Position numbers and translations under genes: made by a program | Notes under the pieces: model-generated | Told to the model about the DNA's origin: nothing | The model's database searches: none | The model's input: the letters and a program-made list of their open reading frames with translations, nothing else | DNA from: Streptomyces sp. TLI_105 | GTDB lineage: Bacteria; Actinomycetota; Actinomycetes; Streptomycetales; Streptomycetaceae | DNA: 64,000 nucleotides | NCBI RefSeq assembly: GCF_900105415.1 | Contig: NZ_FNSM01000001.1 | Location: 3,138,501 to 3,202,500 of the forward strand | Reading direction: 5' to 3' | Shown: in pieces, positions 3,189 through 38,303 of the stretch | Layout: every line of letters starts with the position of its first letter | How positions within the stretch are numbered: the stretch's first letter is position 1

Positions 3189-3229
3189 CTACGCGCGTAG
3201 GAATTCTCCGGCTACGCTTCTGCGCGTAC
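3189..3229. promoter_or_regulatory. Nucleoside-regulon operator at purine nucleoside phosphorylase promoter
   Basis: The perfect palindrome CTACGCGCGTAG occupies 3189-3200. A second, looser dyad (CTACGC-n4-GCGCGTAC) occupies 3212-3229. A TACGCT -10-like box at 3213-3218 would place the -35 region on the first palindrome, so a bound protein would block polymerase. The same palindrome occurs upstream of deoC, add, deoA, the ABC ATPase gene and the BMP lipoprotein gene. Confidence 0.7.
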
Positions 3230-3281
3230 CAAATCCGTCCGGGGTTCCCCTCGGACCCCCCTCCCCGAGGCGAGAGAGTCA

Positions 3282-4085
3282 GTGAACGCAACTGCCACCC
3301 CGTACGAGGCCGCCGAGGCCGCTGCCGCACGTCTTCGCGAGCTGACCGGTGTCGAGAACCACGACGTCGCCCTGGTCATGGGCTCCGGCTGGGCGCCCGC
3401 CGTCGACGCCCTCGGCGCCCCCGAGGCCGAGTTCCCGGTGACCGAGCTCCCCGGCTTCCCGCCGCCGGCCGTCGAGGGCCACGGCGGCAAGGTCCGCTCG
3501 TACAAGATCGGTGAGAAGCGCGCGCTGGTCTTCCTCGGCCGCACCCACTTCTACGAGGGCCGGGGCGTCGCCTCCGTCGCCCACGGCGTCCGCACCGCCG
3601 TCGCCGCCGGCTGCAAGACCGTCGTCCTGACCAACGGCTGCGGCGGCCTCCGCGAGGGCATGCGCCCCGGCCAGCCGGTCCTCATCAGCGACCACATCAA
3701 CCTGACGGCCGCCTCCCCGATCGTCGGCGCGAACTTCGTCGACCTCACCGACCTGTACTCGCCGCGCCTGCGCGCGCTGTGCAAGGAGGTCGACGAGACG
3801 CTGGAGGAGGGCGTGTACGTCCAGTTCCCCGGCCCGCACTACGAGACCCCGGCCGAGATCAACATGGTCCGCGTCATGGGCGGCGACCTCGTCGGCATGT
3901 CCACCGTCCTGGAGGCCATCGCGGCCCGCGAGGCCGGCGCCGAGGTCCTCGGCATCTCCCTCGTCACCAACCTGGCGGCGGGGCTCTCGGGCGAGCCGCT
4001 GAACCACGAGGAGGTGCTCCAGGCGGGGCGCGACTCGGCGGCGCGGATGGGTGAGCTGCTGACGCGGGTCCTCGACCGGATCTGA
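3282..4085 (+). CDS. Purine-nucleoside phosphorylase
   Basis: This 267-residue trimeric-type PNP cleaves purine (deoxy)ribonucleosides with phosphate to free base and (deoxy)ribose-1-phosphate. Visible signatures are the phosphate loop VMGSGW (residues 27-32), GHGGKVRS with the conserved His, the NGCGGL loop, the [10 protein letters not shown] segment holding the base-binding Glu, MGGDLVGMS, and the TNLAAG loop holding the Asn that contacts the purine N7. It starts at GTG (3282) after a GAGGCGAGAGAG ribosome binding site. The phosphomutase gene follows on the same strand after a terminator. A CTACGCGCGTAG operator overlaps its promoter. Confidence 0.95.
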
Positions 4086-4106
4086 GTTCCTCCGGCGCTC
4101 CTCGCA

Positions 4107-4132
4107 CCGATCGGCCCCCTGGGGCCGATCGG
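4107..4132 (+). terminator. Terminator of purine nucleoside phosphorylase gene
   Basis: A 12-bp perfect stem (CCGATCGGCCCC / GGGGCCGATCGG) lies 22 bp past the stop codon. Confidence 0.7.
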
Positions 4133-4380
4133 GCTTCGGAGCGCTGCGGCGGCCTCCGACCGCCGGGTCGTCCGGCTCGCCGGGACCCGCTGCGCGGGGC
4201 TTCCTCCCCACCCCTCCCCCTACGCCTGGCGGCGTGGGGCCCCAGCGGGGCTGATCCCCAGCCCGTCCGACGTTCGAGGACACGGCCGCAGGCCGTACGG
4301 GGGGGGCTGGGGGCCTGCCCCCCCGTTTCGGGAAGGGGCGGGGTGGGGGAAGGCTCCGCACAGCGGCCACCGCACACCCC
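4133..4380. repeat. GC-rich dispersed intergenic repeat (Streptomyces type)
   Basis: The non-coding stretch between the PNP terminator and the mutase start holds runs and inverted segments such as CCGTCCGACGTTCGAGGAC, GGCCGCAGGCCGTACGG and GGGGGCCTGCCCCCC. It resembles the dispersed intergenic repeats I remember from many Streptomyces genomes. I see no gene in it. Its extent is approximate. Confidence 0.4.
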
Positions 4381-4438
4381 GCCGGCCCGCACCCGCCCGC
4401 CGCCCCTCCCGCCCGCATCCCCCGAAAGGCACACCACC

Positions 4439-6091
4439 GTGACGCAGGACGACCTCCTCGCCCGGGCCCAGGCGTGGCTCGCCGAGGACCCCGACCAGGA
4501 GACCCGCGACGAACTCGCCGCGCTCCTCGACCGCAACGCCACCGACGAGCTCACCACCCGCTTCAGCGGCACCCTGCAGTTCGGCACCGCCGGCCTCCGT
4601 GGTGAGCTCGGCGCCGGGCCCATGCGGATGAACCGCTCGGTCGTCATCCGGGCCGCCGCCGGCCTCGCCGCGTACCTGAAGGCGAAGGGCGAGACCGGCG
4701 GTCTCGTCGTCATCGGCTACGACGCCCGCTACAAGTCGGCCGACTTCGCCCGGGACACCGCCGCCGTGATGACGGGCGCCGGGCTGCGCGCCGCGCTGCT
4801 CCCCCGTCCGCTGCCGACGCCCGTCCTCGCGTACGCCATAAGGCACCTGGGCGCCGTCGCCGGCGTCGAGGTGACCGCGAGCCACAACCCGCCGCGCGAC
4901 AACGGCTACAAGGTCTACCTGGGCGACGGCTCGCAGATCGTGCCGCCGGCCGACGCGGAGATCGCCGCCGAGATCGCCGCGGTCCGCTCGCTGGACGACG
5001 TGCCGCGCCCCACCGAGGGCTGGGAGACCCTGGGCGACGAGGTCCTGAACGCCTACCTGGAGCGCACGGACGCCGTCCTGACCCCCGGCTCCCCCCGCAC
5101 CGCGCGGACCGTCTACACGGCCATGCACGGCGTCGGCAAGGAGGTCCTGACGGCCGCGTTCGGCCGTGCCGGCTTCCCGCCGCCCGCGCTCGTCGCCGAG
5201 CAGGCCGACCCGGATCCGGCCTTCCCGACGGTCGCCTTCCCGAACCCGGAGGAGCCGGGCGCCATGGACCTGGCCTTCGAGGCCGCCCGCGCCGTGGACC
5301 CCGACCTCGTGATCGCCAACGACCCCGACGCCGACCGCTGCGCCGTGGCCGTGCCGGACGCCTCAGTCGACGGCGGCTGGCGGATGCTCCGCGGCGACGA
5401 GGTGGGCGCGCTGCTCGCCGCGCACCTGGTGCACAAGGGCGCCACCGGCGTCTTCGCCGAGTCGATCGTGTCGTCCTCGCTGCTCGGCCGCATCGCCGAG
5501 GCGGCGGGCGTCGGCTACGAGGAGACGCTGACCGGCTTCAAGTGGATCGCCCGCGTCGACGGCCTGCGGTACGGCTACGAGGAGGCGCTCGGCTACTGCG
5601 TCGACCCGGAGGGCGTCCGCGACAAGGACGGCATCACGGCGGCGCTCCTCGTCACCGAGCTGGCCTCGGTCCTCAAGGAGCAGGGCCGGACGCTGACCGA
5701 CCTGCTCGACGACCTGGCGGTGGCGCACGGGCTGCACGCCACGGACCAGCTGTCGGTGCGGGTCGAGGACCTGGGGATCATCGCGAACGCGATGGCCGCG
5801 CTGCGCGAGCGGCCGCCGGTCTCCCTCGCCGGTCTGACGGTCGTCTCGGCCGAGGACCTGACGAAGGGCACGGAGTCGCTGCCGCCGACGGACGGGCTGC
5901 GCTACCACCTGGAGGGCGACTACAAGGCCCGGGTGATCGTCCGCCCGAGCGGCACCGAGCCCAAGCTCAAGTGCTACCTGGAGGTCGTCGTCCCGGTCGC
6001 CGACGCGAGCGAACTGGCGGCGGCCCGCGCGACGGGCGCGGAGCTGCTGGCCGCGATCAAGAGGGACCTGTCCGGGGCCGCCGGGCTGTAG
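4439..6091 (+). CDS. Phosphohexomutase-family enzyme, probable phosphopentomutase
   Basis: The 550-residue alpha-D-phosphohexomutase has all four active-site elements: the TASHNP phosphoserine loop (Ser near 151), the metal loop DPDADR near 295, the sugar-binding YEEALGY loop, and the phosphate-binding RPSGTEPK loop near 502. Its length matches the PGM2/PgcA branch, which includes phosphopentomutases, better than the roughly 450-residue ManB/GlmM type. It sits between purine nucleoside phosphorylase and deoC. Interconversion of (deoxy)ribose-1-phosphate and -5-phosphate is therefore the most economical role, and no separate deoB is visible. GTG (4439) is chosen because family homology starts there; the frame is open further upstream. 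No ideal ribosome binding site is seen. Confidence 0.85.
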   Translation: MTQDDLLARAQAWLAEDPDQETRDELAALLDRNATDELTTRFSGTLQFGTAGLRGELGAGPMRMNRSVVIRAAAGLAAYLKAKGETGGLVVIGYDARYKSADFARDTAAVMTGAGLRAALLPRPLPTPVLAYAIRHLGAVAGVEVTASHNPPRDNGYKVYLGDGSQIVPPADAEIAAEIAAVRSLDDVPRPTEGWETLGDEVLNAYLERTDAVLTPGSPRTARTVYTAMHGVGKEVLTAAFGRAGFPPPALVAEQADPDPAFPTVAFPNPEEPGAMDLAFEAARAVDPDLVIANDPDADRCAVAVPDASVDGGWRMLRGDEVGALLAAHLVHKGATGVFAESIVSSSLLGRIAEAAGVGYEETLTGFKWIARVDGLRYGYEEALGYCVDPEGVRDKDGITAALLVTELASVLKEQGRTLTDLLDDLAVAHGLHATDQLSVRVEDLGIIANAMAALRERPPVSLAGLTVVSAEDLTKGTESLPPTDGLRYHLEGDYKARVIVRPSGTEPKLKCYLEVVVPVADASELAAARATGAELLAAIKRDLSGAAGL

Positions 6092-6113
6092 GGCGCGGGG
6101 ACGCGGATACGCG

Positions 6114-6151
6114 GAAGGGCCGGTGCGGAAGCGATTCCGTACCGGCCCTTC
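6114..6151 (+). terminator. Terminator of the phosphomutase gene
   Basis: A 17-bp stem including one G-T pair, closed by a GCGA tetraloop, lies 22 bp after the stop. The outer arms are GAAGGGCCGGT and ACCGGCCCTTC. Confidence 0.8.
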
Positions 6152-6160
6152 GGCGTGTGC

Positions 6161-6318
6161 GGATCCAGGAGCTCGGAGTTCGGATCCTGGAGCCTGGATC
6201 CAGAAGCTTGGATCCAGAAGCTTGGATCCAGAAGCTTGGATCCAGAAGCTTGGATCCAAGAGGTTGGATCCAAGAGGTTGGATCCAAGAGGTTGGAGCTG
6301 GATCCAGGATCCAGCTCC
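6161..6318. repeat. 14-bp tandem repeat built on GGATCC and AAGCTT
   Basis: GGATCC occurs 11 times in this stretch. Eight copies fall at exactly 14-bp steps (6182, 6196, 6210, 6224, 6238, 6252, 6266, 6280). The central units are GGATCCAGAAGCTT (four times) followed by GGATCCAAGAGGTT (three times). The array is distinctly less GC-rich than its surroundings and fills the space between two convergent genes. Unit lengths are too short and spacer-free for a CRISPR array. Confidence 0.9.
6294..6318 (-). terminator. Perfect inverted repeat closing the 14-bp array, possible terminator
   Basis: GGAGCTGGATCC and GGATCCAGCTCC are perfect 12-bp arms around a single A, 12 bp past the stop of the leftward PH-domain gene. 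It may terminate that gene. Confidence 0.5.
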
Positions 6319-6329
6319 CGGCTCCCGGC

Positions 6330-7073
6330 TCAGCCCGTCGCGAGCAGGACCACGAGCAGCAGCAGCCCGGCCAGCGCGGGGCCGACGATCTCGTACGCCC
6401 AGCGCACCCGCGGCTCACCCTGCGCGCCCGGGGACGTGGCGTGCAGCTCGGCGAGCTCGCGCAGCTCGGCGACGGTCTTGTCGCTCGGCGCGATCCGGGA
6501 GGCGTTGTCCCGTACGTCGGCGGTGACGGAGGTACGGCCGTGCGGATCGTCCTGGGAGGCGCGGGCGGCGTTGCGGGCGGCCTTCTTCCGCTGGCGCAGC
6601 GAGACGGGGATCGCCCACAGCTGGTACTTGGCGCCCTCCTGCGTGAAGACCTCGCTGGAGTAGCCGGCGCGGACGTCGGCGACCGAGGCCCAGGGCAGCG
6701 TGATCGACCGGAACGGGTTGCGGATGCGGAGCCGGTCCTCGTTCACGTACACGGCGGGCCGGATCGTGAAGGCGGCGATCAGCGGGACGGCGAGGACGAG
6801 GCCCGCGAGCGCGAACCAGGGCGTGCGGCCCTCGCCGCGGGCCATCGCGTCCGCGGCGAACAGGGCCGCGAGGAGCAGCAGGAAGACCCCGCTCGCGACG
6901 CCGAGGGGCGACCGGTGGACCTTGTCGGCGGAGACGGGCGCGGCGGAGGCCTGCCCGCCGGAGGACTGTCCGCCGGGGGTCCGCCCGGGGGTCTGCCCCG
7001 CGGACGGCTGCTCGGGGGTCGACTCGCGGCTCGGCTCGTGGCTGGGCTCGGGGGTCGGCTCGGGGGTCGTCAT
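6330..7073 (-). CDS. PH-domain membrane protein
   Basis: The 247-residue protein starts with a Pro/Glu/Ser-rich cytoplasmic tail (1-50), followed by two membrane segments (about 57-76 and 86-104). A bacterial PH-like beta domain follows (about 105-160, VYVNEDRLRIRNPFRSITLPW), then a charged Lys/Arg/Ala region, and a last membrane segment at the C-terminal end (about 228-246). No enzymatic motif is present. Actinobacterial proteins of this type are unassigned. The divergent layout with the 14-bp repeat at its 3' end and the sortase gene upstream on the same strand suggests no obvious operon function. Confidence 0.75.
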   Translation of the reverse strand: MTTPEPTPEPSHEPSRESTPEQPSAGQTPGRTPGGQSSGGQASAAPVSADKVHRSPLGVASGVFLLLLAALFAADAMARGEGRTPWFALAGLVLAVPLIAAFTIRPAVYVNEDRLRIRNPFRSITLPWASVADVRAGYSSEVFTQEGAKYQLWAIPVSLRQRKKAARNAARASQDDPHGRTSVTADVRDNASRIAPSDKTVAELRELAELHATSPGAQGEPRVRWAYEIVGPALAGLLLLVVLLATG

Positions 7074-7107
7074 GCCGCCGATTGTGCCTCAGCGGGCGGG
7101 GTGGGGC

Positions 7108-7725
7108 TCAGGCGGCCCGCGCGGCCACCAGGTCCGCGTACACGATGATGTTGTCGGGCCGGTGGCCGTCGACCAGCTCCCCGCCGCAGGTGACGAGGCG
7201 CAGCTCGGGGCGGGTGGTGTTCCCGTACACCTTGGCCGTCGGGAAGGCGTCCTTGTCGACCTGCTCCAGCTCCCGGACCCGGAAGACGGCGGTCGTGCCG
7301 TCGGCGCGGGCCACGGTGATCTCGTCGCCGACCCGGACCCGGGAGACGTTCTTCAGGACGGCCGGGCCGCGCGCGGTGTCGAAGTGGCCGATGAGGACGG
7401 CGGGGCCGGTCTCCCCGGGCGTGACGCCCTTGTCGTACCAGCCGATCCGGTCGGCGTCCGCGACCGAGGGCACCTCGACGGTGCCGTCGGCGTTCAGGCC
7501 GAGGGAGAGGACGGAGCCGGCGTCGACCCCGGCGGCGGGCACCCGGACCCGGACGGGCAGCGAGCGTGCCATCGGCCGGACGGGGGCCGCGGTCGCCTTC
7601 GGGGCGGCGGCGGCCCGCGAGATGTGGGCGGGCGGGGTGGCGGCGGTCTCGCCACCGGCGGAGCAGCCGGTGAGCGCGGTGAGTGCGGCGACGAGGACGA
7701 GCGCGGTACGGGGGCGGCGGTTCAC
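7108..7725 (-). CDS. Class F sortase
   Basis: The 205-residue sortase has the catalytic triad of actinobacterial class F enzymes: His114 in LIGHFD, Cys180 in LRLVTCGG, and Arg189 in GHRPDN. The N-terminus carries a lipobox-like end (LTGC, Cys21), so the enzyme may be lipid-anchored, where many sortases have a membrane helix. Sortases of this class join sorted proteins to the wall, but their natural substrates in Streptomyces are poorly known. Directly upstream on the same strand is a secreted protein with a hydrophobic C-terminal anchor, a plausible partner. A strong hairpin lies 22 bp before the GTG start. Confidence 0.85.
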   Translation of the reverse strand: MNRRPRTALVLVAALTALTGCSAGGETAATPPAHISRAAAAPKATAAPVRPMARSLPVRVRVPAAGVDAGSVLSLGLNADGTVEVPSVADADRIGWYDKGVTPGETGPAVLIGHFDTARGPAVLKNVSRVRVGDEITVARADGTTAVFRVRELEQVDKDAFPTAKVYGNTTRPELRLVTCGGELVDGHRPDNIIVYADLVAARAA

Positions 7726-7747
7726 GGGACGGCTCCGGACGGGGTGT

Positions 7748-7780
7748 GGCCGGTCGCCGCGCGGGACGCGGCGACCGGCC
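7748..7780. other. Strong hairpin just upstream of the sortase start
   Basis: A perfect 14-bp stem (GGCCGGTCGCCGCG and complement) with a 5-nt loop lies between the secreted-protein gene and the sortase start. It could terminate read-through, or control sortase translation as a 5' leader element. Confidence 0.55.
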
Positions 7781-7858
7781 TGGGGCGTGGTGGTGCCTGC
7801 TCGGGTCAGGGGCAGGGGGCGGTACGGGGTCGGCAGCGGGCGGCTGGGGGTGAGCTTC

Positions 7859-7888
7859 GGGCCGTACGGGGTGCAGGACGTACGGCCC
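7859..7888 (-). terminator. Terminator of the secreted-protein gene
   Basis: The 10-bp perfect stem GGGCCGTACG / CGTACGGCCC lies 12 bp past the stop of the leftward secreted-protein gene. Confidence 0.65.
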
Positions 7889-7900
7889 GGCCCGTACGGC

Positions 7901-9049
7901 TCAGCCGCGGGCGCCGGCCGCCCGGCGGCGCAGGACGACGAAGCCGAGGCCCGCGGCGGCGAGCGAGGCCGCGCCCGCGCCGACCGCGATCAGCGCGGTG
8001 GAGTCGTCCTCGGTGGCGAACTCGGCGCCGGCCGCGACGCCGCCCTGGGGGATCACCGAGGTCTGGCCGGTGTTCGTGGCGGCGATGTTGCCGTTGCCGG
8101 CGGGGGTGCCCTTCTCACCGCAGCCCTTGGGGAGCTTCGGGAAGTCGCTCCAACGCTCCTTCGGCGTCTCGACGCTCTGGACGCGCTGGCCGAGGAGCGG
8201 GGTGAGGGTGTCCGCGCCCTTGATCCGGAGGCCGAAGGGGCTCAGGCCGGGGCGGTCGCGGTCGACGGCGTCCATGACCTGGCCGTCGGGGTCGATCATG
8301 ACCGCCGTCGGGCCCTTCTTCAGGTCGTTGGTGAGGACGATCCGCCAGCGCCTGCCGAAGTCCGCGGCGATGACCTCCCGGACGGTGCACTCGCCGGTCT
8401 TGACCGGTCCGGTCAGCTCGGGGACCGAGGCGGGGACCGAGGCGTCGAAGCACTCGACGGGCAGCCGGGTGAAGGCGTGCCAGGTGTAGGGGACGCCGCC
8501 CTGGGGGCGGTCGCCGAGGCCCGGGTAGCGGCTGTGGGCGTCCTGGATGGTGAGGCCGTAGCGGGCGTTGTCGGGGTGGTCGCGGTCCACGGTGGCGATG
8601 ACGGTGCCGTTCGCGTCCTTGAGGACGGCCTTCGGGCCCTTCTTCGCGTCGTGGGTGAGCGTCAGGGTCATGTCGTAGGGGCCGGCGGCGGCGATGACCC
8701 ACTCGGCGGTGCAGGGGCCGAGCATGACGGCCGGACCGGGCTTGGGGCCACGGGTCGCCGGGGCGGGGGCCTCCTCGGACGGCTTGGCGGAGGGCTTCGC
8801 CTCGGGCTTCGCGGTCGGCTCGGTGCCGGGCTTCGCCGGGGTCCCGGCGGCGGGGCCGGCCGCCGGGTCCGCGGGGGCCTCGGCGGACGGTTCGGCGGAC
8901 GGCTGCGCAGCGGACTTCGCATCGGTCACGGGGCTGACGGCGGTCGGGCCGTCGGCGGCGAAGGCCGCACCGGCGGCGAGGGCCGGGGCGGTGATCGCGA
9001 CACCCGCGACGAGGGCGGTGGCGATGGCGGTGCGAAGGGCGGTGCGCAT
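7901..9049 (-). CDS. Secreted protein with duplicated domain and C-terminal membrane anchor
   Basis: The 382-residue protein has a Sec signal peptide ending near residue 31 (ALAAGAAFAA) and a Pro/Ala/Lys/Glu-rich stalk (about 35-100). Two copies of a domain of about 90 residues follow, starting at GPCTAEWVIAA and GECTVREVIAA and both containing DAKKGP/DLKKGP and VDRD. The C-terminus is a hydrophobic helix followed by LRRR. This is the layout of a sortase substrate, but there is no clear LPxTG; the region before the helix reads ATNTGQTSVIPQGGVAAG. The class F sortase is encoded next on the same strand. I do not recognise the repeated domain. Confidence 0.7.
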   Translation of the reverse strand: MRTALRTAIATALVAGVAITAPALAAGAAFAADGPTAVSPVTDAKSAAQPSAEPSAEAPADPAAGPAAGTPAKPGTEPTAKPEAKPSAKPSEEAPAPATRGPKPGPAVMLGPCTAEWVIAAAGPYDMTLTLTHDAKKGPKAVLKDANGTVIATVDRDHPDNARYGLTIQDAHSRYPGLGDRPQGGVPYTWHAFTRLPVECFDASVPASVPELTGPVKTGECTVREVIAADFGRRWRIVLTNDLKKGPTAVMIDPDGQVMDAVDRDRPGLSPFGLRIKGADTLTPLLGQRVQSVETPKERWSDFPKLPKGCGEKGTPAGNGNIAATNTGQTSVIPQGGVAAGAEFATEDDSTALIAVGAGAASLAAAGLGFVVLRRRAAGARG

Positions 9050-9270
9050 AACGACTCCTGTGAGATCAGGCAGGTGGATGGGAGAGTCGCATGCCGCTTT
9101 TTCTCGGTCCGACTGTGTCCGGTGAGGTCTGGCTGGCTGCTGAACGAAAATCTATTGATCTTGTATTCGGGAGCCGTCCGCTCCGCGTCACAGCCGCGTG
9201 ACGGGCATCACCACGCCGGAGGACCCCCTGTGACCTCGGGCTCGATGAACGGGCTCCCCTGTACAGGTCG

Positions 9271-9289
9271 CTACGCGCGTAGATATGCT
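9271..9289 (+). promoter_or_regulatory. deoC promoter with nucleoside-regulon operator
   Basis: CTACGCGCGTAG at 9271-9282 is followed by a TATGCT -10 box at 9284-9289. The GTG of deoC starts 6 nt later, so the operator lies in the -35/-10 spacer and the message is probably leaderless. Confidence 0.7.
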
Positions 9290-9295
9290 CGACTG

Positions 9296-10261
9296 GTGAC
9301 CATGCCCACCACTGCACCCGCAGCTCTCGCATTCGCCGACGTGACCGCGTCCGACAGTGCGCTGCGCCGCTTCCTCCACGGGCTGCCCGGCGTCGACGCC
9401 GTCGGCCTGGAGGCGCGCGCCGCGTCCCTCGGCACCCGCTCGATCAAGACCACGGCCAAGGCGTACGCCATCGACCTGGCCATCTCCATGATCGACCTGA
9501 CGACGCTCGAAGGCGCGGACACCCCGGGCAAGGTCCGGGCGCTCGCCGCCAAGGCCGTCAACCCCGATCCGACCGACCGCACGACCCCGAAGACCGCCGC
9601 CGTCTGCGTCTACCCCGACATGGTGGCCACCGCCAAGGCCGCCGTCGCGGGCTCGGGCGTCAAGGTCGCCTCGGTCGCCACCGCCTTCCCGGCCGGGCGC
9701 GCCGCGCTCCCCGTGAAGCTGGCCGACACCGCCGACGCCATCGCCGCCGGCGCCGACGAGATCGACATGGTCATCGACCGTGGCGCCTTCCTCGCCGGCC
9801 GGTACATGGAGGTGTACGAGCAGATCGCCGCCATCAAGGCCGAGTGCGGCGACCGCGCCCGCCTCAAGGTGATCTTCGAGACCGGCGAGCTCTCCACGTA
9901 CGACAACATCCGCCGCGCCTCCTGGCTCGGCATGATGGCGGGCGCGGACTTCATCAAGACCTCGACCGGCAAGGTCGCGGTCAACGCCACCCCGGCGAAC
10001 ACCCTCCTCATGCTGGAGGCGGTGCGCGACTTCCGCGCCCAGACCGGCGTGCAGATCGGCGTGAAGCCGGCCGGCGGCATCCGCAACACCAAGGAAGCGA
10101 TCAAGTTCCTGGTTCTCGTCAACGAGACCGTGGGCGAGGACTGGCTGGACAACCACTGGTTCCGCTTCGGCGCTTCCAGCCTGCTCAACGACCTGCTGAT
10201 GCAGCGCCAGAAGCTGGCGACCGGCCGTTACTCCGGCCCCGATTACGTGACGGTGGACTGA
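9296..10261 (+). CDS. deoC: Deoxyribose-phosphate aldolase
   Basis: DeoC splits 2-deoxyribose-5-phosphate into glyceraldehyde-3-phosphate and acetaldehyde. The 321-residue sequence shows VASVATAFPAG, ADEIDMVID, the KVIFETGEL segment, the Schiff-base lysine in DFIKTSTGK, and VGIKPAGG-like VGVKPAGGIR (here IGVKPAGGIR). GTG (9296) is preferred because it lies 6 nt after the -10 box; an in-frame ATG at 9302 is the alternative. Two aldehyde dehydrogenase genes follow within 5 nt, which places acetaldehyde removal next to its production. Confidence 0.93.
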   Translation: MTMPTTAPAALAFADVTASDSALRRFLHGLPGVDAVGLEARAASLGTRSIKTTAKAYAIDLAISMIDLTTLEGADTPGKVRALAAKAVNPDPTDRTTPKTAAVCVYPDMVATAKAAVAGSGVKVASVATAFPAGRAALPVKLADTADAIAAGADEIDMVIDRGAFLAGRYMEVYEQIAAIKAECGDRARLKVIFETGELSTYDNIRRASWLGMMAGADFIKTSTGKVAVNATPANTLLMLEAVRDFRAQTGVQIGVKPAGGIRNTKEAIKFLVLVNETVGEDWLDNHWFRFGASSLLNDLLMQRQKLATGRYSGPDYVTVD

Positions 10262-10266
10262 TCAAC

Positions 10267-12589: not shown

Positions 12590-12625
12590 CGAGCGGCTCC
12601 TCGTACCGGCCGGCACCGGTGGAGG

Positions 12626-23038: not shown

Positions 23039-23060
23039 ACTGTAGCCCCTACGCGCGTAG
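23039..23060 (-). promoter_or_regulatory. add promoter with nucleoside-regulon operator
   Basis: Reading leftward, CTACGCGCGTAG (23060-23049) precedes GGGC and the -10 box TACAGT (23044-23039), then 6 nt and the ATG. The layout is the same as at deoC. Confidence 0.75.
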
Positions 23061-27942: not shown

Positions 27943-27975
27943 CCCCGGCTGTCAGTCGGCTGCGGTAGCTTCCCT

Positions 27976-28004: not shown

Positions 28005-28026
28005 GGGTGAGTGGGGTGTGGACCCG

Positions 28027-29348: not shown

Positions 29349-29387
29349 GCTTCCGGGGCCCGACCACCGGATCGCTAGGCTCGGGCC

Positions 29388-31123: not shown

Positions 31124-31141
31124 GGACGGGGCGCGGCATGC

Positions 31142-31177
31142 CGGACGGGGCCGGTGGTGGTCCACCGGCCCCGTCCG
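31142..31177. terminator. Bidirectional terminator between HEAT-like gene and deoA
   Basis: A perfect 16-bp stem (CGGACGGGGCCGGTGG and complement) with a 4-nt loop TGGT lies between the convergent gene ends. Confidence 0.85.
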
Positions 31178-31201
31178 TCCGGGGGCGTCGCAGGCGGATG
31201 C

Positions 31202-32479
31202 CTACGCGATGCGGTCCAGCACGATCGGGTTCGGGGTGAACGCCGTGCCCTCCGGCTCGATGTCCCACGCCCCCGACAGGGACTTCAGGGCGTAGTCGAA
31301 CTTCTCCGGGGTGTCCGTGTGGAGGGTCAGCAGCGGCTGGCCCGCCGTCACCGTGTCGCCCGGCTTGGCGTGGAGCTCGACGCCGGCACCCGCCTGCACC
31401 GGGTCCTCCTTGCGGGCGCGGCCCGCGCCCAGGCGCCAGGCGGCGATGCCGATGTCGTACGCGTCGAGGCGGGTGAGGACACCGGTCGACGGGGCCGTGA
31501 CGACGTGCTGCTCGCGGGCGACCGGGAGGGTCGCGTCGGGGTCGCCGCCCTGGGCCGCGATCATCCGGCGCCAGACGTCCATCGCCGAGCCGTCCCGGAG
31601 GGCCTTCGCCGGGTCGGCGTCCTTGATGCCGGCGGCGGCCAGCATCTCGGCCGCGAGGGCGATCGTCAGGTCGACGACGTCCTTCGGGCCGCCGCCCGCG
31701 AGGACCTCGACCGACTCGCGGACCTCCAGGGCGTTGCCGGCGGTGAGGCCGAGCGGGGTGGACATGTCGGTGAGCAGTGCGACGGTCTTCACGCCGCTGT
31801 CGGTGCCGAGACCGACCATCGTCCGCGCCAGCTCGCGCGCGTCCTCGATGTTCTTCATGAAGGCGCCGGTGCCGACCTTGACGTCCAGGACGAGCGAGCC
31901 GGTGCCCTCGGCGATCTTCTTCGACATGATCGAGGAGGCGATCAGCGGGATGGCCTCGACCGTGCCGGTGACGTCGCGGAGCGCGTAGAGCTTCTTGTCC
32001 GCCGGGGCCAGGCCGTCGCCCGCCGCGCAGATGACCGCGCCCGTGGTGTCGAGGACGTGCAGCATCTCCTCGTTGGAGAGCAGCGCGCGCCAGCCGGGGA
32101 TGGACTCCAGCTTGTCGAGCGTGCCGCCGGTGTGGCCGAGGCCGCGGCCGGAGAGCTGCGGCACGGCCGCGCCGCAGGCCGCGACGAGCGGGGCGAGCGG
32201 AAGGGTGATCTTGTCGCCGACGCCGCCGGTGGAGTGCTTGTCGGCGGTCGGGCGGGAGAGCGCGTCGAAGTTCATGCGCTCGCCGGACGCGATCATGGCG
32301 GCGGTCCAGCGGGCGATCTCCGTGCGGTTCATGCCGTTCAGCAGGATGGCCATGGCCAGGGCGGACATCTGCTCGTCGGCGACCGCACCGCGGGTGTACG
32401 CGTCGATGACCCAGTCGATCTGCTCGGGGCTCAGCTCGCCCTTGTCCCGCTTGGTGCGGATGACGGAGATGACGTCCAT
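31202..32479 (-). CDS. deoA: Thymidine phosphorylase
   Basis: The 425-residue enzyme cleaves thymidine or deoxyuridine with phosphate to base and deoxyribose-1-phosphate. The family signature KHSTGGVGDKITLPLAPL is present near residue 75, with GRGLGHTGGTLDKLES and a glycosyltransferase-family phosphate site. The C-terminal PYNP domain is also present (LGAGRARKEDPVQAGAGVELHAKPGD). ATG (32479) is preferred because AAAGAGGC precedes it; an upstream frame extension lacks support. A variant of the nucleoside palindrome lies 15 nt upstream of the start, although the gene is also last in the transporter-cdd operon. Confidence 0.95.
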   Translation of the reverse strand: MDVISVIRTKRDKGELSPEQIDWVIDAYTRGAVADEQMSALAMAILLNGMNRTEIARWTAAMIASGERMNFDALSRPTADKHSTGGVGDKITLPLAPLVAACGAAVPQLSGRGLGHTGGTLDKLESIPGWRALLSNEEMLHVLDTTGAVICAAGDGLAPADKKLYALRDVTGTVEAIPLIASSIMSKKIAEGTGSLVLDVKVGTGAFMKNIEDARELARTMVGLGTDSGVKTVALLTDMSTPLGLTAGNALEVRESVEVLAGGGPKDVVDLTIALAAEMLAAAGIKDADPAKALRDGSAMDVWRRMIAAQGGDPDATLPVAREQHVVTAPSTGVLTRLDAYDIGIAAWRLGAGRARKEDPVQAGAGVELHAKPGDTVTAGQPLLTLHTDTPEKFDYALKSLSGAWDIEPEGTAFTPNPIVLDRIA

Positions 32480-32493
32480 GGTGGTGCCTCTTT

Positions 32494-32505
32494 CTACGCG
32501 CATAG
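32494..32505. promoter_or_regulatory. Nucleoside-regulon operator upstream of deoA
   Basis: CTACGCGCATAG, one mismatch from the palindrome, lies between cdd and deoA, directly before the deoA ribosome binding site. It suggests an internal, separately controlled promoter for deoA. Confidence 0.65.
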
Positions 32506-32560
32506 AGGGGGGAAAGGGGAGCGACCCTTCCCATCGTGCCGGAAGGGCCGCTCCGAGGTG

Positions 32561-32965
32561 TTACTTGGCGAGGTGGTCCGGGCCGAAGGCCTGCGGGAGC
32601 ATCTCCGCCAGGGTCAGGAACCCGGCCGGGGTCTCCAGGACGAGCTCGGGGCCCCCGAACTCGTACAGGAGCTGCCGGCAGCGCCCGCACGGGACCAGGG
32701 ACTCGCCCCGGCCGTCCACGCACACGAAGTGCGTCAGACGCCCGCCGCCGGTCGCCTGGAGCTGCGAGACGAGCCCGCACTCGGCGCACAGGCCGAGGCC
32801 GAAGGAGGCGTTCTCCACGTTGCAGCCGGAGATCACCCGCCCGTCGTCCACGAGGGCCGCCGCGCCGACCGGGTAGCCCGAGTACGGGGCGTACGCGTGG
32901 GACATCGCCTCGCGGGCGGTCTCCCGCAGGAGGTCCCAGTCGGGCTCCGGGAGGGCGGGCGTCAC
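32561..32965 (-). CDS. cdd: Cytidine deaminase
   Basis: The 134-residue tetrameric-type enzyme has the catalytic/zinc segments NVENASFGLGLCAECG (Cys and Glu) and VPCGRCRQLLYEF (two zinc cysteines). It also has YSGYPVGAAALVDDG of the substrate pocket. It converts (deoxy)cytidine to (deoxy)uridine, feeding DeoA. GTG start overlaps the upstream permease stop by 4 nt (GTGA), so translation is coupled. Confidence 0.95.
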   Translation of the reverse strand: MTPALPEPDWDLLRETAREAMSHAYAPYSGYPVGAAALVDDGRVISGCNVENASFGLGLCAECGLVSQLQATGGGRLTHFVCVDGRGESLVPCGRCRQLLYEFGGPELVLETPAGFLTLAEMLPQAFGPDHLAK

Positions 32966-34224
32966 TTGCCCTCGCCCTTGCGGTACGGCAGGCCGTCCGC
33001 CTTCGGCATCCGCAGGCGCTGCGCCGAGAGGGCCAGCACGAGCAGGGTGGTGATGTACGGGGCGGCGTCGACGAACTGGCTCGGGACCTCGTCGGTGAGC
33101 ACGTACCAGAGGAAGAAGCCGACGGCGAAGACCGCGCCGATCGCGGCCACCACCCACTTCTTCTTGTACATCTGCCACAGCGCGGCGATCACCAGGAGCA
33201 GCGCGACGAGCAGCAGCAGCGCGTGGACGTTCTCGGCGCCGCCGCGCAGCTTGAGGCTGTCGGTGAAGCCGAAGAGGCCGGCGCCCATGGCCATGCCGCC
33301 GGGCATCCAGTTGCCGAAGATCATCGCGGCGAGACCGATGTAACCGCGGCCGCCGGTCTGGCCCTCCTGGTAGATGCCGGTGGAGACGATCGCCAGGAAG
33401 GCGCCGCCGAGGCCGGCCAGGCCGCCGGAGACGACGACGGCGATGTACTTGTACTTGTAGACGTTGACGCCGAGGGACTCGGCGGCGACCGGGTTCTCAC
33501 CGCAGGAGCGGAGCCGCAGGCCGAAGGCCGTGCGCCAGAGCACCCACCAGGTGGCCGGGATGAGCAGGGCGGCCACGATCGTCAGCAGCGACAGGTGGGT
33601 GACCAGGCCGCCGAGGATGCCGGCGATGTCCGAGATCAGGAACCAGTGCTTCTGCTGGAGGTCGATCAGCCAGTCGGAGAGTCCCGGGATGGTGATGTCG
33701 GTGATCTGGTCGATGCGCGGGGACTGCTTGGAGGAGCCGCCCTCGGCCTTGTCGAAGGTGAAGTTCGACAGGTACTGGGTGAAGCCGACCGCCAGGATGT
33801 TGACGGCCACACCGGAGACGATGTGGTTCACGTTGAACGTGACGGTGATGATCGCGTGCAGCAGACCGCCGATCGCGCCGCCGAGGATGCCGACGACGAC
33901 ACCCGTCCACGGGCCCCACTGGTAGCCGGCCCAGGCGCCGAACCAGGTGCCGAGGACCATCATGCCTTCGAGGCCGATGTTGACGACGCCCGCGCGCTCG
34001 GACCACAGACCGCCGAGACCGGCCATGGCGATCGGCACGGCGAGCTGGAGCGCGCCGGAGACCTGGCCGACGGAGGTGAGGTCGTCGGCCCCGGAGACGA
34101 CGCGGACGAGCGAGAAGAGGACGATGCCGGCCGCGACGATCAGCAGGATCCAGGGCCAGGTCAGCTTGCGGCGTCCGGCCTTCTTGGGCGCGGCGCTCGG
34201 CTTGGCAACGGTGCCGGTGCTCAT
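32962..34224 (-). CDS. Nucleoside ABC transporter permease (BmpA-type system)
   Basis: The 420-residue BPD_transp_2-family membrane protein has about 10 helices and the family loop ERAGVVNIGLEGMMVLG near residue 77. It also has SCGENPVAAESLGVNVYKYK, the conserved cytoplasmic coupling region. The short N-terminal tail is Lys/Ala-rich. It pairs with the permease encoded just upstream (ATGA overlap). Proteins of this family import nucleosides, simple sugars or branched amino acids; the adjacent cdd and deoA make nucleosides the clear substrate. Confidence 0.9.
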   Translation of the reverse strand: MSTGTVAKPSAAPKKAGRRKLTWPWILLIVAAGIVLFSLVRVVSGADDLTSVGQVSGALQLAVPIAMAGLGGLWSERAGVVNIGLEGMMVLGTWFGAWAGYQWGPWTGVVVGILGGAIGGLLHAIITVTFNVNHIVSGVAVNILAVGFTQYLSNFTFDKAEGGSSKQSPRIDQITDITIPGLSDWLIDLQQKHWFLISDIAGILGGLVTHLSLLTIVAALLIPATWWVLWRTAFGLRLRSCGENPVAAESLGVNVYKYKYIAVVVSGGLAGLGGAFLAIVSTGIYQEGQTGGRGYIGLAAMIFGNWMPGGMAMGAGLFGFTDSLKLRGGAENVHALLLLVALLLVIAALWQMYKKKWVVAAIGAVFAVGFFLWYVLTDEVPSQFVDAAPYITTLLVLALSAQRLRMPKADGLPYRKGEGK

Positions 34225-35336
34225 GCCGCCACCTCCTTGTCGGTCTTGATGGCGCCGCCGGCGGCGAGCTCCTCGCCGACCTTCTGCTGCTGGCGGCGGA
34301 GGCCGTAACGGCGGACGAGCTCGTAGGAGACGACCACGGCGATCACGATGATGCCCTTCATGATCTCGGTGATCTCCTTCGGGTAGCCCGCGATGTCGAG
34401 GCTCGAGGACGCCTTCTCCAGGAACGCGAAGAGCAGGGCTGCGAACAGGATGCCGACCGGGTGGTTGCGGCCGAGCAGGGCGACGGTGATGGCGGTGAAG
34501 CCGACGCCGACAGGGAAGGCCAGGCTGTACGTGTGCGTCTCGCCGAGCAGGATCGGCATGCCGGCCAGACCGGCGAGGGCACCCGAGATCAGCATCGCGG
34601 TGAGGATCATCTTCTTGGCGTCGACGCCGCTGGCCCGGGCCGCGGACTCGCTCTCGCCGGTGGCGCGGAGGTCGAAGCCGAACTTGGTGCGGTTGAGGAC
34701 GAACCAGTAGACGACACCCAGGGCGAAGGCCACGAAGGTGAAGCCGTAGATCTGGCCGCCCTCGCCCATGTCGATGCCGGGGAACCAGCCGGACTCTGCG
34801 ATCTGACCGGTGGTGAGGTCGTTGGAGCCCGCGGGCTGGACGCCGAAGTTCTTCGGCAGGATCAGCCAGGCCACCAGGGAGGTGGTGATGGCGTTCAACA
34901 TGATCGTGGAGACGACCTCGGAGACGCCACGGGTGGTCTTCAGGATGCCCGCGATGCCGGCCCAGAAGGCACCGGTCACCATCGCGACGAGCACGATGAG
35001 CAGGATGTGCAGCGGACCGGGCAGGTCCACGGCGGCGCCGACCAGCGCCGACAGCATCGCGGCGAGGCGGTACTGCCCGTCGACGCCGATGTTGAAGAGG
35101 TTCATCCGGAAGCCGATGGCCACGGCCAGGGCCGCGAGATAGAGGGTTCCGGTGTAGTTGACGATGAGGACCTGGACGTCGGAGTACCCGGCGTTGTCGA
35201 TCATCAGCCGGATCGGCTCGATCGGGTCCAGGCCCGTCGCGAGCAGCACCAGAACGGTGAGCACGAAGGAGGTGACCAGAGCGAGCACGGGGCCGGCGGC
35301 CCCGATGATCAGCTTGTCCTTGTCGATCTTCATCAT
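34221..35336 (-). CDS. Nucleoside ABC transporter permease (first of pair)
   Basis: The 371-residue BPD_transp_2 permease has the RMNLFNIGVDGQYRLAAMLSA loop in the position equivalent to the second permease's GVVNIGLEGMM motif. It has about 8-9 helices and a cytoplasmic loop with RATGESESAARASGVDAKK. Its start overlaps the ATPase stop (ATGA), and its stop overlaps the next permease, so the three are translated as a coupled set. Confidence 0.9.
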   Translation of the reverse strand: MMKIDKDKLIIGAAGPVLALVTSFVLTVLVLLATGLDPIEPIRLMIDNAGYSDVQVLIVNYTGTLYLAALAVAIGFRMNLFNIGVDGQYRLAAMLSALVGAAVDLPGPLHILLIVLVAMVTGAFWAGIAGILKTTRGVSEVVSTIMLNAITTSLVAWLILPKNFGVQPAGSNDLTTGQIAESGWFPGIDMGEGGQIYGFTFVAFALGVVYWFVLNRTKFGFDLRATGESESAARASGVDAKKMILTAMLISGALAGLAGMPILLGETHTYSLAFPVGVGFTAITVALLGRNHPVGILFAALLFAFLEKASSSLDIAGYPKEITEIMKGIIVIAVVVSYELVRRYGLRRQQQKVGEELAAGGAIKTDKEVAA

Positions 35337-36970
35337 CGGGCGTCACCGTCTTCGGACTGCTCTTCGGTGCCTTCGAGGCGGCCGGTGGCTGCGCCTGTCA
35401 TGGCGGAGCCCAGCTGCTCGGGCGTGATGGTGGCGGGGTCGGCGTCGGCGACCAGCTTGCCGCGGTACATGACCCGGAGCGTGTCGGACAGGCCGATCAG
35501 CTCGTCGAGGTCGGCGGAGATCAGCAGCACCGCGAGGCCCGCGCGGCGGGCGTCCCGGATCGCGTCCCAGATCTGCGCCTGCGCGCCGACGTCCACACCG
35601 CGGGTGGGGTGGGCGGCGATCAGGAACTTCGGGTTGTGGCTCATCTCGCGGCCGACGATCAGCTTCTGCTGGTTGCCGCCGGAGAGGGAGGACGCGGTGA
35701 CGTCGATGCCGGGGGTGCGGACGTCGTACTCGCGCACGATCCGCTCGGTGTCCTTGCGGGCGGCCTTCGGGTCGAGGATGCCGCGCTTGGAGTTGGGGGC
35801 CTCGGTGACGTGGCCGAGGATGCGGTTCTCCCAGAGGGGGGCCTCCAGGAGCAGGCCGTGGCGGTGGCGGTCCTCGGGGATGTAGCCGATGCCGCCCTCG
35901 CGGCGCCTGCGCACGGAGACCTTGGAGATGTCCTCGCCGTCGAGGGTGATGACGCCCGCGTCGGGGGCGGACATGCCCATCAGGGCCTCGATGAGCTCGG
36001 TCTGGCCGTTGCCCTCGACACCGGCGATGCCGAGGATCTCGCCCTTGTGGATGGTGAGCGAGATGTCGTCGAGGAGCTTGCGGCCCGCGCCGATCTCCTG
36101 GAGGGTGACCGCGCCGGACGGGTCCGGCGGGGCGGCGGTGGTGAGCGGGGCGGCCGCGGCGGCGCCGGCCTCGGTCAGGGTCAGGCCCTCGACCTGGAGC
36201 ATCGGGACGTCCGTGACCGTCGACTCGCGGGTCTCCGGCGAGGGCAGCTCGCTGCCGACCATCAGCTCGGCGAGCTGCTTGGTGGTGGCGGTCTTCGGGT
36301 CGGCGGTGCCGACCGTGGTGCCCCGGCGGATGACGGTGATGTCGTCGGCGACCTTCAGGACCTCGCCCAGCTTGTGCGAGATGAAGATGACGGTGAGGCC
36401 CTCGGACTTGAGCTCGCGCAGGTTGTCGAAGAGCGCGTCGACCTCCTGCGGGACCAGGACGGCGGTCGGCTCGTCGAGGATGAGGATCTTCGCGCCGCGG
36501 TAGAGGACCTTGAGGATCTCCACGCGCTGCCGCTCGGCGACGCCGAGGTCCTCGACGAGCGCGTCGGGGCGGACCCCGAGGCCGTACGCGTCGGAGATCT
36601 CCTTGATCTTCCTCCGCGCCTTGGCGCCGATGCCGTAGAGCTTCTCGCCGCCGAGGACGACGTTCTCCAGGACGGTGAGGTTGTCGGCGAGCATGAAGTG
36701 CTGGTGCACCATGCCGATGCCGCGGGCGATGGCGTCACCGGGGGTGGAGAAGGTGACCTGCTCGCCGTCGACCGCGATGGTGCCCTCGTCCGGCTTCTGC
36801 ATGCCGTAGAGGATCTTCATGAGGGTCGACTTGCCGGCACCGTTCTCGCCGATGAGGGCGTGCACGGTGCCCTTGCGGACCGTGATGGCGATGTCCTTGT
36901 TGGCGACGACGCCGGGGAAACGCTTGGTGATGCCGTGCAGTTCTACGGCAGGGGGGCTGGACGCGTTGAT
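35333..36970 (-). CDS. Nucleoside ABC transporter ATPase, probable non-canonical ATC start
   Basis: The 545-residue double ATPase has an N-terminal half with Walker A GENGAGKST, Q-loop and signature LGVAERQRVEI, and Walker B LILDEPT. Its C-terminal half has a degenerate Walker A GVEGNGQTE, signature LSGGNQQKL and Walker B FLIAAHPTRG. The family N-terminus (AVELHGITKRFPGVVAN) lies upstream of the first ATG/GTG/TTG in frame (GTG, 36865), which would cut away the strand before Walker A. The frame stays open to an ATC at 36970 placed 8 nt after a perfect AAGGAG. I take ATC as start by inference. Confidence 0.8.
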   Translation of the reverse strand: MNASSPPAVELHGITKRFPGVVANKDIAITVRKGTVHALIGENGAGKSTLMKILYGMQKPDEGTIAVDGEQVTFSTPGDAIARGIGMVHQHFMLADNLTVLENVVLGGEKLYGIGAKARRKIKEISDAYGLGVRPDALVEDLGVAERQRVEILKVLYRGAKILILDEPTAVLVPQEVDALFDNLRELKSEGLTVIFISHKLGEVLKVADDITVIRRGTTVGTADPKTATTKQLAELMVGSELPSPETRESTVTDVPMLQVEGLTLTEAGAAAAAPLTTAAPPDPSGAVTLQEIGAGRKLLDDISLTIHKGEILGIAGVEGNGQTELIEALMGMSAPDAGVITLDGEDISKVSVRRRREGGIGYIPEDRHRHGLLLEAPLWENRILGHVTEAPNSKRGILDPKAARKDTERIVREYDVRTPGIDVTASSLSGGNQQKLIVGREMSHNPKFLIAAHPTRGVDVGAQAQIWDAIRDARRAGLAVLLISADLDELIGLSDTLRVMYRGKLVADADPATITPEQLGSAMTGAATGRLEGTEEQSEDGDAR

Positions 36971-37023
36971 GACGCACTCTCCTTGGCCGGAAGGAGTGGG
37001 AGCGGGGAGGGCAGGGCGGGGCG

Positions 37024-37058
37024 AAGTTATCGTGCCAGGGAGACATCTACACGCGTAG
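37024..37058 (-). promoter_or_regulatory. ABC transporter promoter with nucleoside-regulon operator
   Basis: CTACACGCGTAG (37047-37058) differs by one base from the palindrome. It overlaps the -35 position of a promoter with TAACTT (leftward, 37029-37024) as -10 box. Confidence 0.6.
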
Positions 37059-37097
37059 CGCTGCCGAAAAATGAAAACCCGTACGGGAATGGGGCCG

Positions 37098-37138
37098 GGG
37101 CCCGGGATCCGGTGGGGCTGCCACCGGACGCCGGGCCC
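37098..37138 (-). terminator. Hairpin between BMP lipoprotein gene and ATPase gene
   Basis: A two-part stem (GGGCCCGG + CCGGTGG with CCACCGG + CCGGGCCC) lies 27 bp past the lipoprotein stop. It may limit read-through so that the binding protein is made in excess of the transporter. Confidence 0.65.
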
Positions 37139-37164
37139 TGGCTCAGGTCGTGACCTGGGTGTCC

Positions 37165-38229
37165 TTACGGAGTGGTCTTGACCGTGATCTTGCCGTCGAC
37201 GATCTCCTTCTTCGCCTTGTCCACCGCGGCGATGAGGTCCGTCATCTTCGTGTACGCCGGGTTGGAGTCGGCCAGGCCGACGCCGTTGGCGGCGAGGCCG
37301 TAACGGATCTCACCGGCCTGCGGCTTGCCGTCCTTGACCGACTTGATCACGTTGAAGACCGAGCCGGAGACGTCCTTGGTGACCGAGGTCAGGATGTGGT
37401 CCTTGTACGCCGCCAGACCCGCCTGCTTGTACTGGTCGGAGTCGACGCCGATGGCCCACTTGCCCGCGGTGGCGGTGGCCTCGATGGCGCCGGCGCCGGC
37501 GAGACCGGCGGCGGCGTAGATCACGTCGGCGCCCTTGTCGAGCTGGCCCTGCGCGGCGGCCTTGCCGAGGTCGGGCTTCGAGAAGCCGTCGAAGTTCGGC
37601 GGCTGGGTCAGGTACTGGGTGAGCACCTTCGCCTTGGGGTTGGTGTCCTTGACGCCCTGAGTGAAGCCCGCCTCGAACTTCTTGATCAGCGGGACCTCGA
37701 CGCCGCCGATGAAGCCGACCGTGCCGGACTTGGACGCCTTGGCGGCGGCGACGCCGGCCAGGTAGGAGCCCTGCTCCTCGTTGAAGACGAGGTTGGCGAT
37801 GTTCGGGCCGGTCTTCGACGTGTCGTCGATGAGGCCGAAGGTGGTCTTCGGGAAGGACTTGGCGACCTTCTCGATGGCCGGGGCGTAGGAGAAGCCGACG
37901 CCGATGACCGGGTTGTTCCCGGCGCGGGCCAGCGAGGTGAGGCGCGCGACCTTGTCGGCGTCGCTCTCGCCCTGCGACGGCTCGGCCTCGGAGCCCTTGA
38001 CGCCGAGCTCGGCCTCGGCCTTCTTCAGGCCGGCGTAGGCGGCGTCGTTGAACGACTGGTCGCCACGGCCGCCGATGTCGTACGCGAGGGCGGCCTTGAG
38101 GGCGCCCGACGCCGAGGACGAGCTGGAGCTCGAACCCGAGTCGTTGGACGACTTGCCACACGCGGTGACGGACAGGGCGAGCGCCGCGGAGGCGATGCCC
38201 ACGGTCGTGATCCTGGTGATCCGGCGCAA
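37165..38229 (-). CDS. BMP-family nucleoside-binding lipoprotein
   Basis: The 354-residue substrate-binding protein of PnrA/BmpA type has a lipoprotein signal with lipobox LSVTAC, a Ser-rich linker, then the BMP domain: ALAYDIGGRGDQSFNDAAYAGLKKAE, NPVIGVGFSYAPAI, GTVGFIGG, GADVIYAAAG, VGVDSDQ (here IGVDSDQYKQAG). It delivers nucleosides to the permease pair encoded downstream. It starts at TTG (38229), 8 nt after a GAAGGGA ribosome binding site; no ATG or GTG lies in frame upstream within a sensible distance. Confidence 0.92.
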   Translation of the reverse strand: MRRITRITTVGIASAALALSVTACGKSSNDSGSSSSSSSASGALKAALAYDIGGRGDQSFNDAAYAGLKKAEAELGVKGSEAEPSQGESDADKVARLTSLARAGNNPVIGVGFSYAPAIEKVAKSFPKTTFGLIDDTSKTGPNIANLVFNEEQGSYLAGVAAAKASKSGTVGFIGGVEVPLIKKFEAGFTQGVKDTNPKAKVLTQYLTQPPNFDGFSKPDLGKAAAQGQLDKGADVIYAAAGLAGAGAIEATATAGKWAIGVDSDQYKQAGLAAYKDHILTSVTKDVSGSVFNVIKSVKDGKPQAGEIRYGLAANGVGLADSNPAYTKMTDLIAAVDKAKKEIVDGKITVKTTP

Positions 38230-38291
38230 GAGGAGGGTCCCTTCAAGACTGACCGAAAGCGCCTCTTCCGGCGCTGGTTTCGCGGCGATCG

Positions 38292-38303
38292 TAACGCGCG
38301 TAG
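38292..38303. promoter_or_regulatory. Nucleoside-regulon operator at BMP lipoprotein promoter
   Basis: TAACGCGCGTAG matches 10 of 12 palindrome positions. Read leftward it runs into TACGAT, a good -10 box, so operator and promoter overlap. Confidence 0.55.

What the first reader, a model, noticed from the sequence alone, without database searches (positions are those of the whole stretch)
3189..38303. A 12-bp palindrome marks a nucleoside uptake and catabolism regulon spread over 35 kb
CTACGCGCGTAG occurs exactly at 3189 (purine nucleoside phosphorylase), 9271 (deoC) and 23049 (add). It occurs with 1-2 changes at 32494 (deoA), 37047 (ABC ATPase) and 38292 (BMP lipoprotein). All six sites lie at promoters of nucleoside genes and none of the other intergenic regions I scanned has one. 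At deoC and add it sits in the -35/-10 spacer; at the other promoters it overlaps the -35 or -10 box. This fits a repressor released by a nucleoside or a phosphorylated deoxyribose. The DeoR-family protein at the window edge is the nearest candidate regulator but its own promoter lacks the site.
Basis: partly seen in the sequence, partly recalled or inferred. Interest (0 to 1): 0.85.

Follow-up and report, generated by a model that had tools for sequence, protein, structure and literature searches.

The report
Shared switch for nucleic-acid scavenging genes
A short mirror-image DNA word marks the promoters of genes with which Streptomyces and its relatives take up and break down nucleosides; the same or a one-letter-off word marks several nucleotidase, nuclease, base-permease and purine genes elsewhere in the chromosome, so an unidentified regulator probably controls scavenging of nucleic acids as a unit.

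Summary
The 8.9 Mb genome has exactly three exact copies of CTACGCGCGTAG, all in this window; about 0.0025 were expected per 64 kb. Each of 295 same-genus genomes sampled has 2-6 copies. In 20 genomes of 14 genera, 77 of 77 PNP, deoC, add and BMP-lipoprotein promoters carry it with at most 2 mismatches (neighbouring genes 2 of 170; reversed control 1 of 77), while the flanks have diverged. The site lies on or just before the apparent -10 box at varying distance, which fits a repressor that blocks RNA polymerase. The regulator is not identified. The DeoR-family protein occurs in 17 of 17 family genomes searched, but its promoter lacks the site, some homologues elsewhere sit beside sugar transporters, and it scores as AgaR/GlpR-like. 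A MarR candidate was excluded by distribution. No expression or binding data were available.

The parts
3189..3200 (.). operator, exact, upstream of PNP; 12 nt before a -10-like TACGCT
   Evidence: 20 of 20 orthologous promoters keep it (16 exact, 3 with 1 mismatch, 1 with 2); a TANNNT box follows by 10-13 nt in 16 of 20
9271..9282 (.). operator, exact, upstream of deoC; one base before -10-like TATGCT (9284-9289)
   Evidence: 20 of 20 orthologous promoters (12 exact, 8 with 1 mismatch); the ATATGCT that follows is present in 19 of 20 (all but G678)
23049..23060 (.). operator, exact, upstream of add; 4 nt before -10-like TACAGT, which is 6 nt from the ATG (probably leaderless)
   Evidence: 19 of 19 orthologous promoters (18 exact, 1 with 1 mismatch); G672 had no add match in the stretch fetched
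32494..32505 (.). operator, 1 mismatch, between cdd and deoA, 14 nt before the deoA ATG
   Evidence: <=2 mismatches in 7 of 18 genomes, so weakly conserved
37047..37058 (.). operator, 1 mismatch, between BMP lipoprotein and ABC ATPase genes
   Evidence: <=1 mismatch in 9 of 18 genomes
38292..38303 (.). operator, 2 mismatches, upstream of BMP lipoprotein; the changed half overlaps a -10-like box
   Evidence: 18 of 18 genomes keep a site with 1-2 mismatches; 16 of 18 read CTACGCGCGTTA towards the gene
3282..4085 (+). purine-nucleoside phosphorylase
   Evidence: PF01048; TIGR01698 above cut-off
9302..10261 (+). deoC, deoxyribose-phosphate aldolase (start by eye; 9341-10261 was scanned)
   Evidence: TIGR00126 above cut-off, PF01791
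21878..23032 (-). add, adenosine deaminase
   Evidence: NF006847 above cut-off, PF00962
31202..32479 (-). deoA, thymidine/pyrimidine-nucleoside phosphorylase (31202-32503 was scanned)
   Evidence: PF00591, PF07831, PF02885
32561..32965 (-). cdd, cytidine deaminase
   Evidence: PF00383
32962..34224 (-). ABC permease of the nucleoside operon
   Evidence: PF02653
34221..35336 (-). second ABC permease
   Evidence: position and orthologues; no HMM run
35333..36865 (-). ABC ATPase (true start lies further upstream)
   Evidence: PF00005, two stretches
37165..38202 (-). BMP/PnrA-type nucleoside-binding lipoprotein
   Evidence: PF02608 (on 37165-38229)
1..711 (-). DeoR-family regulator, runs off the left edge (full gene L046:7749-8711); possible but unproven binder
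   Evidence: PF08220 + PF00455; NCBIfam best AgaR and GlpR, below their cut-offs; its promoter lacks the operator

Best explanation
tCTACGCGCGTAGa is the operator of one dimeric transcription factor, conserved throughout the Streptomycetaceae, that controls scavenging of nucleic acids: nucleases and nucleotidases that look secreted, nucleoside and base uptake, nucleoside phosphorolysis and deamination, deoxyribose-phosphate cleavage, pyrimidine-base breakdown and, at purSQL, purine synthesis. The factor most likely represses by sitting on the promoter and is released when a nucleoside, base or derived sugar phosphate builds up. Shown by sequence: the operator, its conservation and its target list. 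Inferred: that the binder is one protein, repression, and release by ligand. Unknown: which protein and which ligand.
For: Three exact copies in 8.9 Mb, all here; 295 of 295 same-genus genomes with 2-6 copies; 100 of 101 family genomes, 16 of 17 genera; outside the genus 10 of 268 genomes of the class sample. 77 of 77 core promoters against 1 of 77 for the reversed control; 119 palindromes of permuted half-site average 2.0, maximum 13; neighbouring genes 2 of 170. Core identity 0.95-0.99, 5' flanks 0.31-0.36. One site per genome in 76 family genomes: 70 at PNP, deoC, add, add-like or ABC genes, 2 at a 5'-nucleotidase, 1 at purS, 3 unassigned; 0 of 10 loci outside the family match the query genes. 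Sixteen-base pattern with <=3 mismatches: 19 sites against 2 for the control. Unlinked conserved sites; lysozyme: 13 of 14 loci that have it, 0 of 10 that lack it. Distance to the -10-like box runs from overlap to about 12 nt, all inside the polymerase footprint.
Against: No binding, expression or mutant data. No regulator gene carries the site in a way that singles it out. Counts with one mismatch are not clearly above the control in any of four genomes and are below it in three (own 23/19, G013 25/33, G247 23/28, G036 23/30), so weak single sites may be chance. Of 19 exact out-of-cluster sites examined, 8 have no nucleotide link I can name. -10 boxes are read by eye, and 4 of 20 PNP promoters show none at 7-15 nt; the consensus promoter scan found none at deoC.
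Confidence: 0.8

Rival explanations
1. The DeoR-family protein at the window edge (orthologue of SCO4920, name recalled) binds the operator and is released by a deoxyribose or ribose phosphate.
For: Orthologue in 17 of 17 family genomes searched and in 0 of 7 genomes of the two other families of the order (E <= 1e-50); within about 3.5 kb of PNP in 11 of the 13 non-genus clusters fetched, 7-8 kb in G674 and G677; its sensor domain family binds sugar phosphates (recalled).
Against: Own promoter lacks the site in 20 of 20 genomes (best 3-5 mismatches) and shows other conserved sequence. Homologues with the same SEVTVRRD helix in other families sit beside sugar-type ABC transporter genes (read by eye) in three of five loci annotated; none of nine such loci has a site with <=1 mismatch. 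Best NCBIfam models are AgaR and GlpR (187.6, 178.1 bits, below cut-off); the E. coli DeoR model gets 74.
Confidence: 0.22
2. The factor is an activator rather than a repressor.
For: At add no conserved -35 box is seen (by eye).
Against: The distance from operator to -10-like box varies from overlap (BMP) through 1 (deoC) and 4 (add) to about 12 nt (PNP); class II or MerR-type activation needs fixed placement (established knowledge).
Confidence: 0.17
3. The palindrome works in RNA as a hairpin or attenuator.
For: A perfect palindrome can fold; at deoA it may lie in the leader.
Against: At add and deoC it precedes the -10-like box of apparently leaderless genes, so it would not be transcribed from those promoters (inference). 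No folding was run.
Confidence: 0.02
4. Chance or simple common descent without function.
For: With 1-2 mismatches the site is frequent.
Against: Diverged flanks around a near-invariant core, 77 of 77 promoters, and sites at unlinked genes of the same pathway.
Confidence: 0.01

Closest known systems
E. coli DeoR/CytR nucleoside regulons (recalled)
   Same: One operator shared by deoC, deoA, nucleoside phosphorylase and transport genes.
   Different: Different operator; here the set also covers nucleotidases and nucleases that look secreted, base permeases, purSQL and a dihydropyrimidinase operon; no CytR or DeoR orthologue has been tied to it (CytR was not searched for).
NupR of Bacillus thuringiensis (GntR/HutC; PMC9430930, abstract start seen in the listing)
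   Same: Regulator of nucleoside uptake in a Gram-positive bacterium.
   Different: Described there mainly for nucleoside transport; operator not compared here.
S. coelicolor XdhR (PMC6627660, passages seen)
   Same: Purine-linked repressor in Streptomyces.
   Different: Targets described in those passages are xdhABC and actII genes, ligand ppGpp (weaker GTP); none of the present targets is named there.
E. coli PurR (LacI family; PMC10912719, passages seen)
   Same: Palindromic operator with repression of purine genes; the present operator has a central CpG as LacI-family operators often do (recalled).
   Different: Here catabolic and salvage genes dominate; family of the binder unknown.

Membership tests
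DeoR-type nucleoside regulon | shared operator at deoC, deoA, phosphorylase and uptake genes | tested here: met
   (deoA only 7 of 18)
DeoR-type nucleoside regulon | the nearby DeoR-family protein is an orthologue of E. coli DeoR | tested here: not met
   PRK10681 (DeoR) 74 bits against cut-off 244; AgaR 187.6 (cut-off 260), GlpR 178.1 (cut-off 300), also below cut-off
DeoR-type nucleoside regulon | operator resembles TGTTAGAATTCTAACA (recalled) | tested here: not met
   by eye, consensus: little more than the TA steps coincide
DeoR-type nucleoside regulon | release by deoxyribose-5-phosphate | not testable with these tools
   needs binding assays
MarR-type autoregulated system | the regulator gene next to a site is present wherever the operator is | tested here: not met
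   no close orthologue in G670, G671, G673, G683 (matches 35-43% identical), which keep the operator
LacI-family operator | even palindrome with central CpG | tested here: met
   weak, many families share this
LacI-family operator | a LacI-family protein binds it | not tested
   no candidate protein identified

The most novel reading that the evidence does not exclude
A previously undescribed family-wide regulator runs a dedicated programme for eating the nucleic acids of dead cells: a secreted lysozyme opens cells, secreted nucleases and nucleotidases make nucleosides, and uptake, salvage and catabolism follow, all behind one operator and together with purSQL, so that purine synthesis and scavenging answer to one signal.
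Probability: 0.4. Interest if true: 0.78.

Novelty: new variant of a known kind. Interest (0 to 1): 0.62.

Why it matters
It gives the Streptomycetaceae a defined candidate regulon for nucleic-acid and nucleotide scavenging, with predicted members from extracellular enzymes to central metabolism. Purine and ppGpp pools are linked to development and antibiotic onset in Streptomyces (PMC6627660, passages), so a regulator joining purSQL to salvage would be a practical handle. The operator is short, near-invariant and present in hundreds of species, so the missing regulator can be sought directly by affinity purification.

Tried and rejected
MarR regulator beside the GH25 lysozyme as binder: rejected on distribution; the site there goes with the lysozyme (13 of 14 loci with it, 0 of 10 without). 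TetR gene beside DeoR: found in 8 of 24 neighbouring loci, so not a general candidate. G378, a non-family genome with three exact sites: the two read in detail, 32 kb apart, are not at nucleoside genes, and the third (L048) has no match to the query genes. The rpoB-start site (4 of 4 genomes): flanks equally conserved, so not counted. Literature: search and passage searches gave no report of the operator; the 12-mer occurs in two papers on DNA or protein-DNA structure by title (listing only). SCO4920 appears in the passages seen only in a network-module table and a regulator list of an expression study.

Not done: no structure prediction, no homologous-protein search, no RNA-family search, no folding.

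Full report
Observation. Counting sites with up to two mismatches gives no excess over shuffles (6 against 4.75; 32 of 100 shuffles reach 6), and allowing one mismatch genome-wide gives 23 against 19 for the reversed control. The exact word is different: about 0.0025 expected per 64 kb, three found, and these are the only three in 8,876,291 bases; the reversed control has none.

Conservation. All 295 same-genus genomes sampled (own included) have 2-6 exact copies; the control has 0-4. In the family 100 of 101 genomes and 16 of 17 genera have at least one; the exception, G678, keeps 1-2-mismatch versions before add, deoC and PNP. In a class sample 28 of 28 same-genus genomes and 10 of 268 others have one; in the order 3 of 15 genomes of two other families. 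Of the 119, 112 lie before an adenosine deaminase and 3 before PNP; the other 4 are the three MAGs and one stretch that ends 47 bases after the site begins (a first look at 80 is). The pattern was chosen to fit add, so this tests taxonomy more than target range.

Promoter test. In 20 genomes of 14 genera I took 300 bases before and 30 bases after each gene start. PNP 20 of 20, deoC 20 of 20, add 19 of 19 and BMP 18 of 18 have a site with at most two mismatches; nine neighbouring genes have 2 of 170. Missing from these counts are genes with no match in the stretch fetched (add in G672; BMP in G677 and G678). The reversed motif scores 1 of 77, and all 119 other palindromes made by permuting the half-site average 2.0 with a maximum of 13. 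Mean pairwise identity is 0.95-0.99 in the core and 0.31-0.36 in the 25 bases before it. The consensus is tCTACGCGCGTAGa. Internal sites are weaker: ATPase 9 of 18, deoA 7 of 18.

Wider regulon. The first-listed exact site in 76 family genomes (one locus each) falls at PNP, deoC, add, add-like or the ABC operon in 70, before a 5'-nucleotidase in 2, before purS in 1, and is unassigned in 3. Five of the 70 are an adenosine deaminase paralogue 59-63% identical to add; where both positions are listed (G292, G591, and L326 from G067) it lies far from, or on another contig than, the main group of sites. Of 10 loci outside the family none matches the query genes; I read the neighbours of three of them, and one (L096) lies inside an IMP-dehydrogenase-like coding sequence. 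I examined 19 exact sites outside the cluster: 11 and 8 of 12 fetched because they stood apart in the lists (the other 4 proved to be add or the ABC operon). Eleven are nucleotide-related (6 second add, 2 5'-nucleotidase, 2 purS, 1 ExeM/NucH-like nuclease) and 8 are not, or not nameable (one of these precedes a phytase-like protein).

In four genomes I read 76 loci with one-mismatch sites outside the cluster (own loci also). Conserved among them: Xan_ur permease 4 of 4 genomes, 5'-nucleotidase 4 of 4, purS 4 of 4 with different substitutions, CpdB-like 3 of 4, beta-ureidopropionase-like operon 3 of 4, GmrSD_C (HNH-like) protein with a signal-like start 3 of 4, GH25 lysozyme 3 of 4, cytosine/purine permease 2 of 4. 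Names come from HMM scans of one copy each and by eye for the rest. An ExeM/NucH-like nuclease has a one-mismatch site in G013 and a two-mismatch site in the own genome. The remaining loci include coding-sequence hits, the rpoB start (4 of 4) and unrelated genes. The beta-ureidopropionase-like gene scores best as N-carbamoylputrescine amidase, below cut-off; it is followed by a class-III aminotransferase and a dihydropyrimidinase (TIGR02033 above cut-off). Nuclease names rest on sub-cut-off NCBIfam hits and PF07510. That these enzymes are secreted is read from signal-like N-termini, not tested. The lysozyme site was tested in the 24 best loci of its neighbouring MarR gene (of 30 returned): 14 have the lysozyme and 13 of these a one-mismatch site before it; the 10 without it have none.

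Mechanism. At deoC the -10-like TATGCT follows the operator by one base in 19 of 20; at add a TANNNT-like box usually follows by four, with the ATG about six bases later; at PNP a TANNNT box follows by 10-13 bases in 16 of 20; at BMP it overlaps the altered half-site (read by eye). Such variable placement inside the polymerase footprint argues for repression by occlusion. This is inference; the consensus promoter scan found no match at deoC.

Regulator. The DeoR-family gene at the edge is on the minus strand (full gene L046:7749-8711). Its presence matches the operator within the order (17 of 17 against 0 of 7), but its promoter has no site, some relatives elsewhere sit beside sugar transporters, and by profile it is closer to AgaR and GlpR. 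I put it at about one in five. The MarR candidate is excluded. The regulator remains open.

Identity.

Noticed in passing
window 1-711 and L153, L155, L158: DeoR-family homologues (57-68% identical over the aligned part) in other families sit beside sugar-type ABC transporter genes with GATCG elements nearby, suggesting a different operator for this protein group.
   Followed up: partly
L042, L066, L100, L113, L116, L326: A second adenosine deaminase (59-63% identical to add) carries the exact operator at its start in several genomes.
   Followed up: yes
L225:1501-1526: In G013 the CpdB-like gene has two one-mismatch operator copies two bases apart.
   Followed up: no
L010, L236, L244, L271: GTACGCGCGTAG (or its reverse complement) overlaps the rpoB start in 4 of 4 genomes, with equally conserved flanks.
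   Followed up: no
L124, L126, L164-L180 upstream of deoR: The promoter of the DeoR-family gene has its own partly conserved element around GAACAACTTCTGTTA, perhaps autoregulatory.
   Followed up: no
window 39938-43134: By eye, genes resembling N-acetylneuraminate synthase, a cytidylyltransferase and a polysialyltransferase-like protein, just beyond the nucleoside operon; no HMM run.
   Followed up: no
L325:1501: An exact operator 220 bases before a phytase-like protein (PF13449).
   Followed up: no
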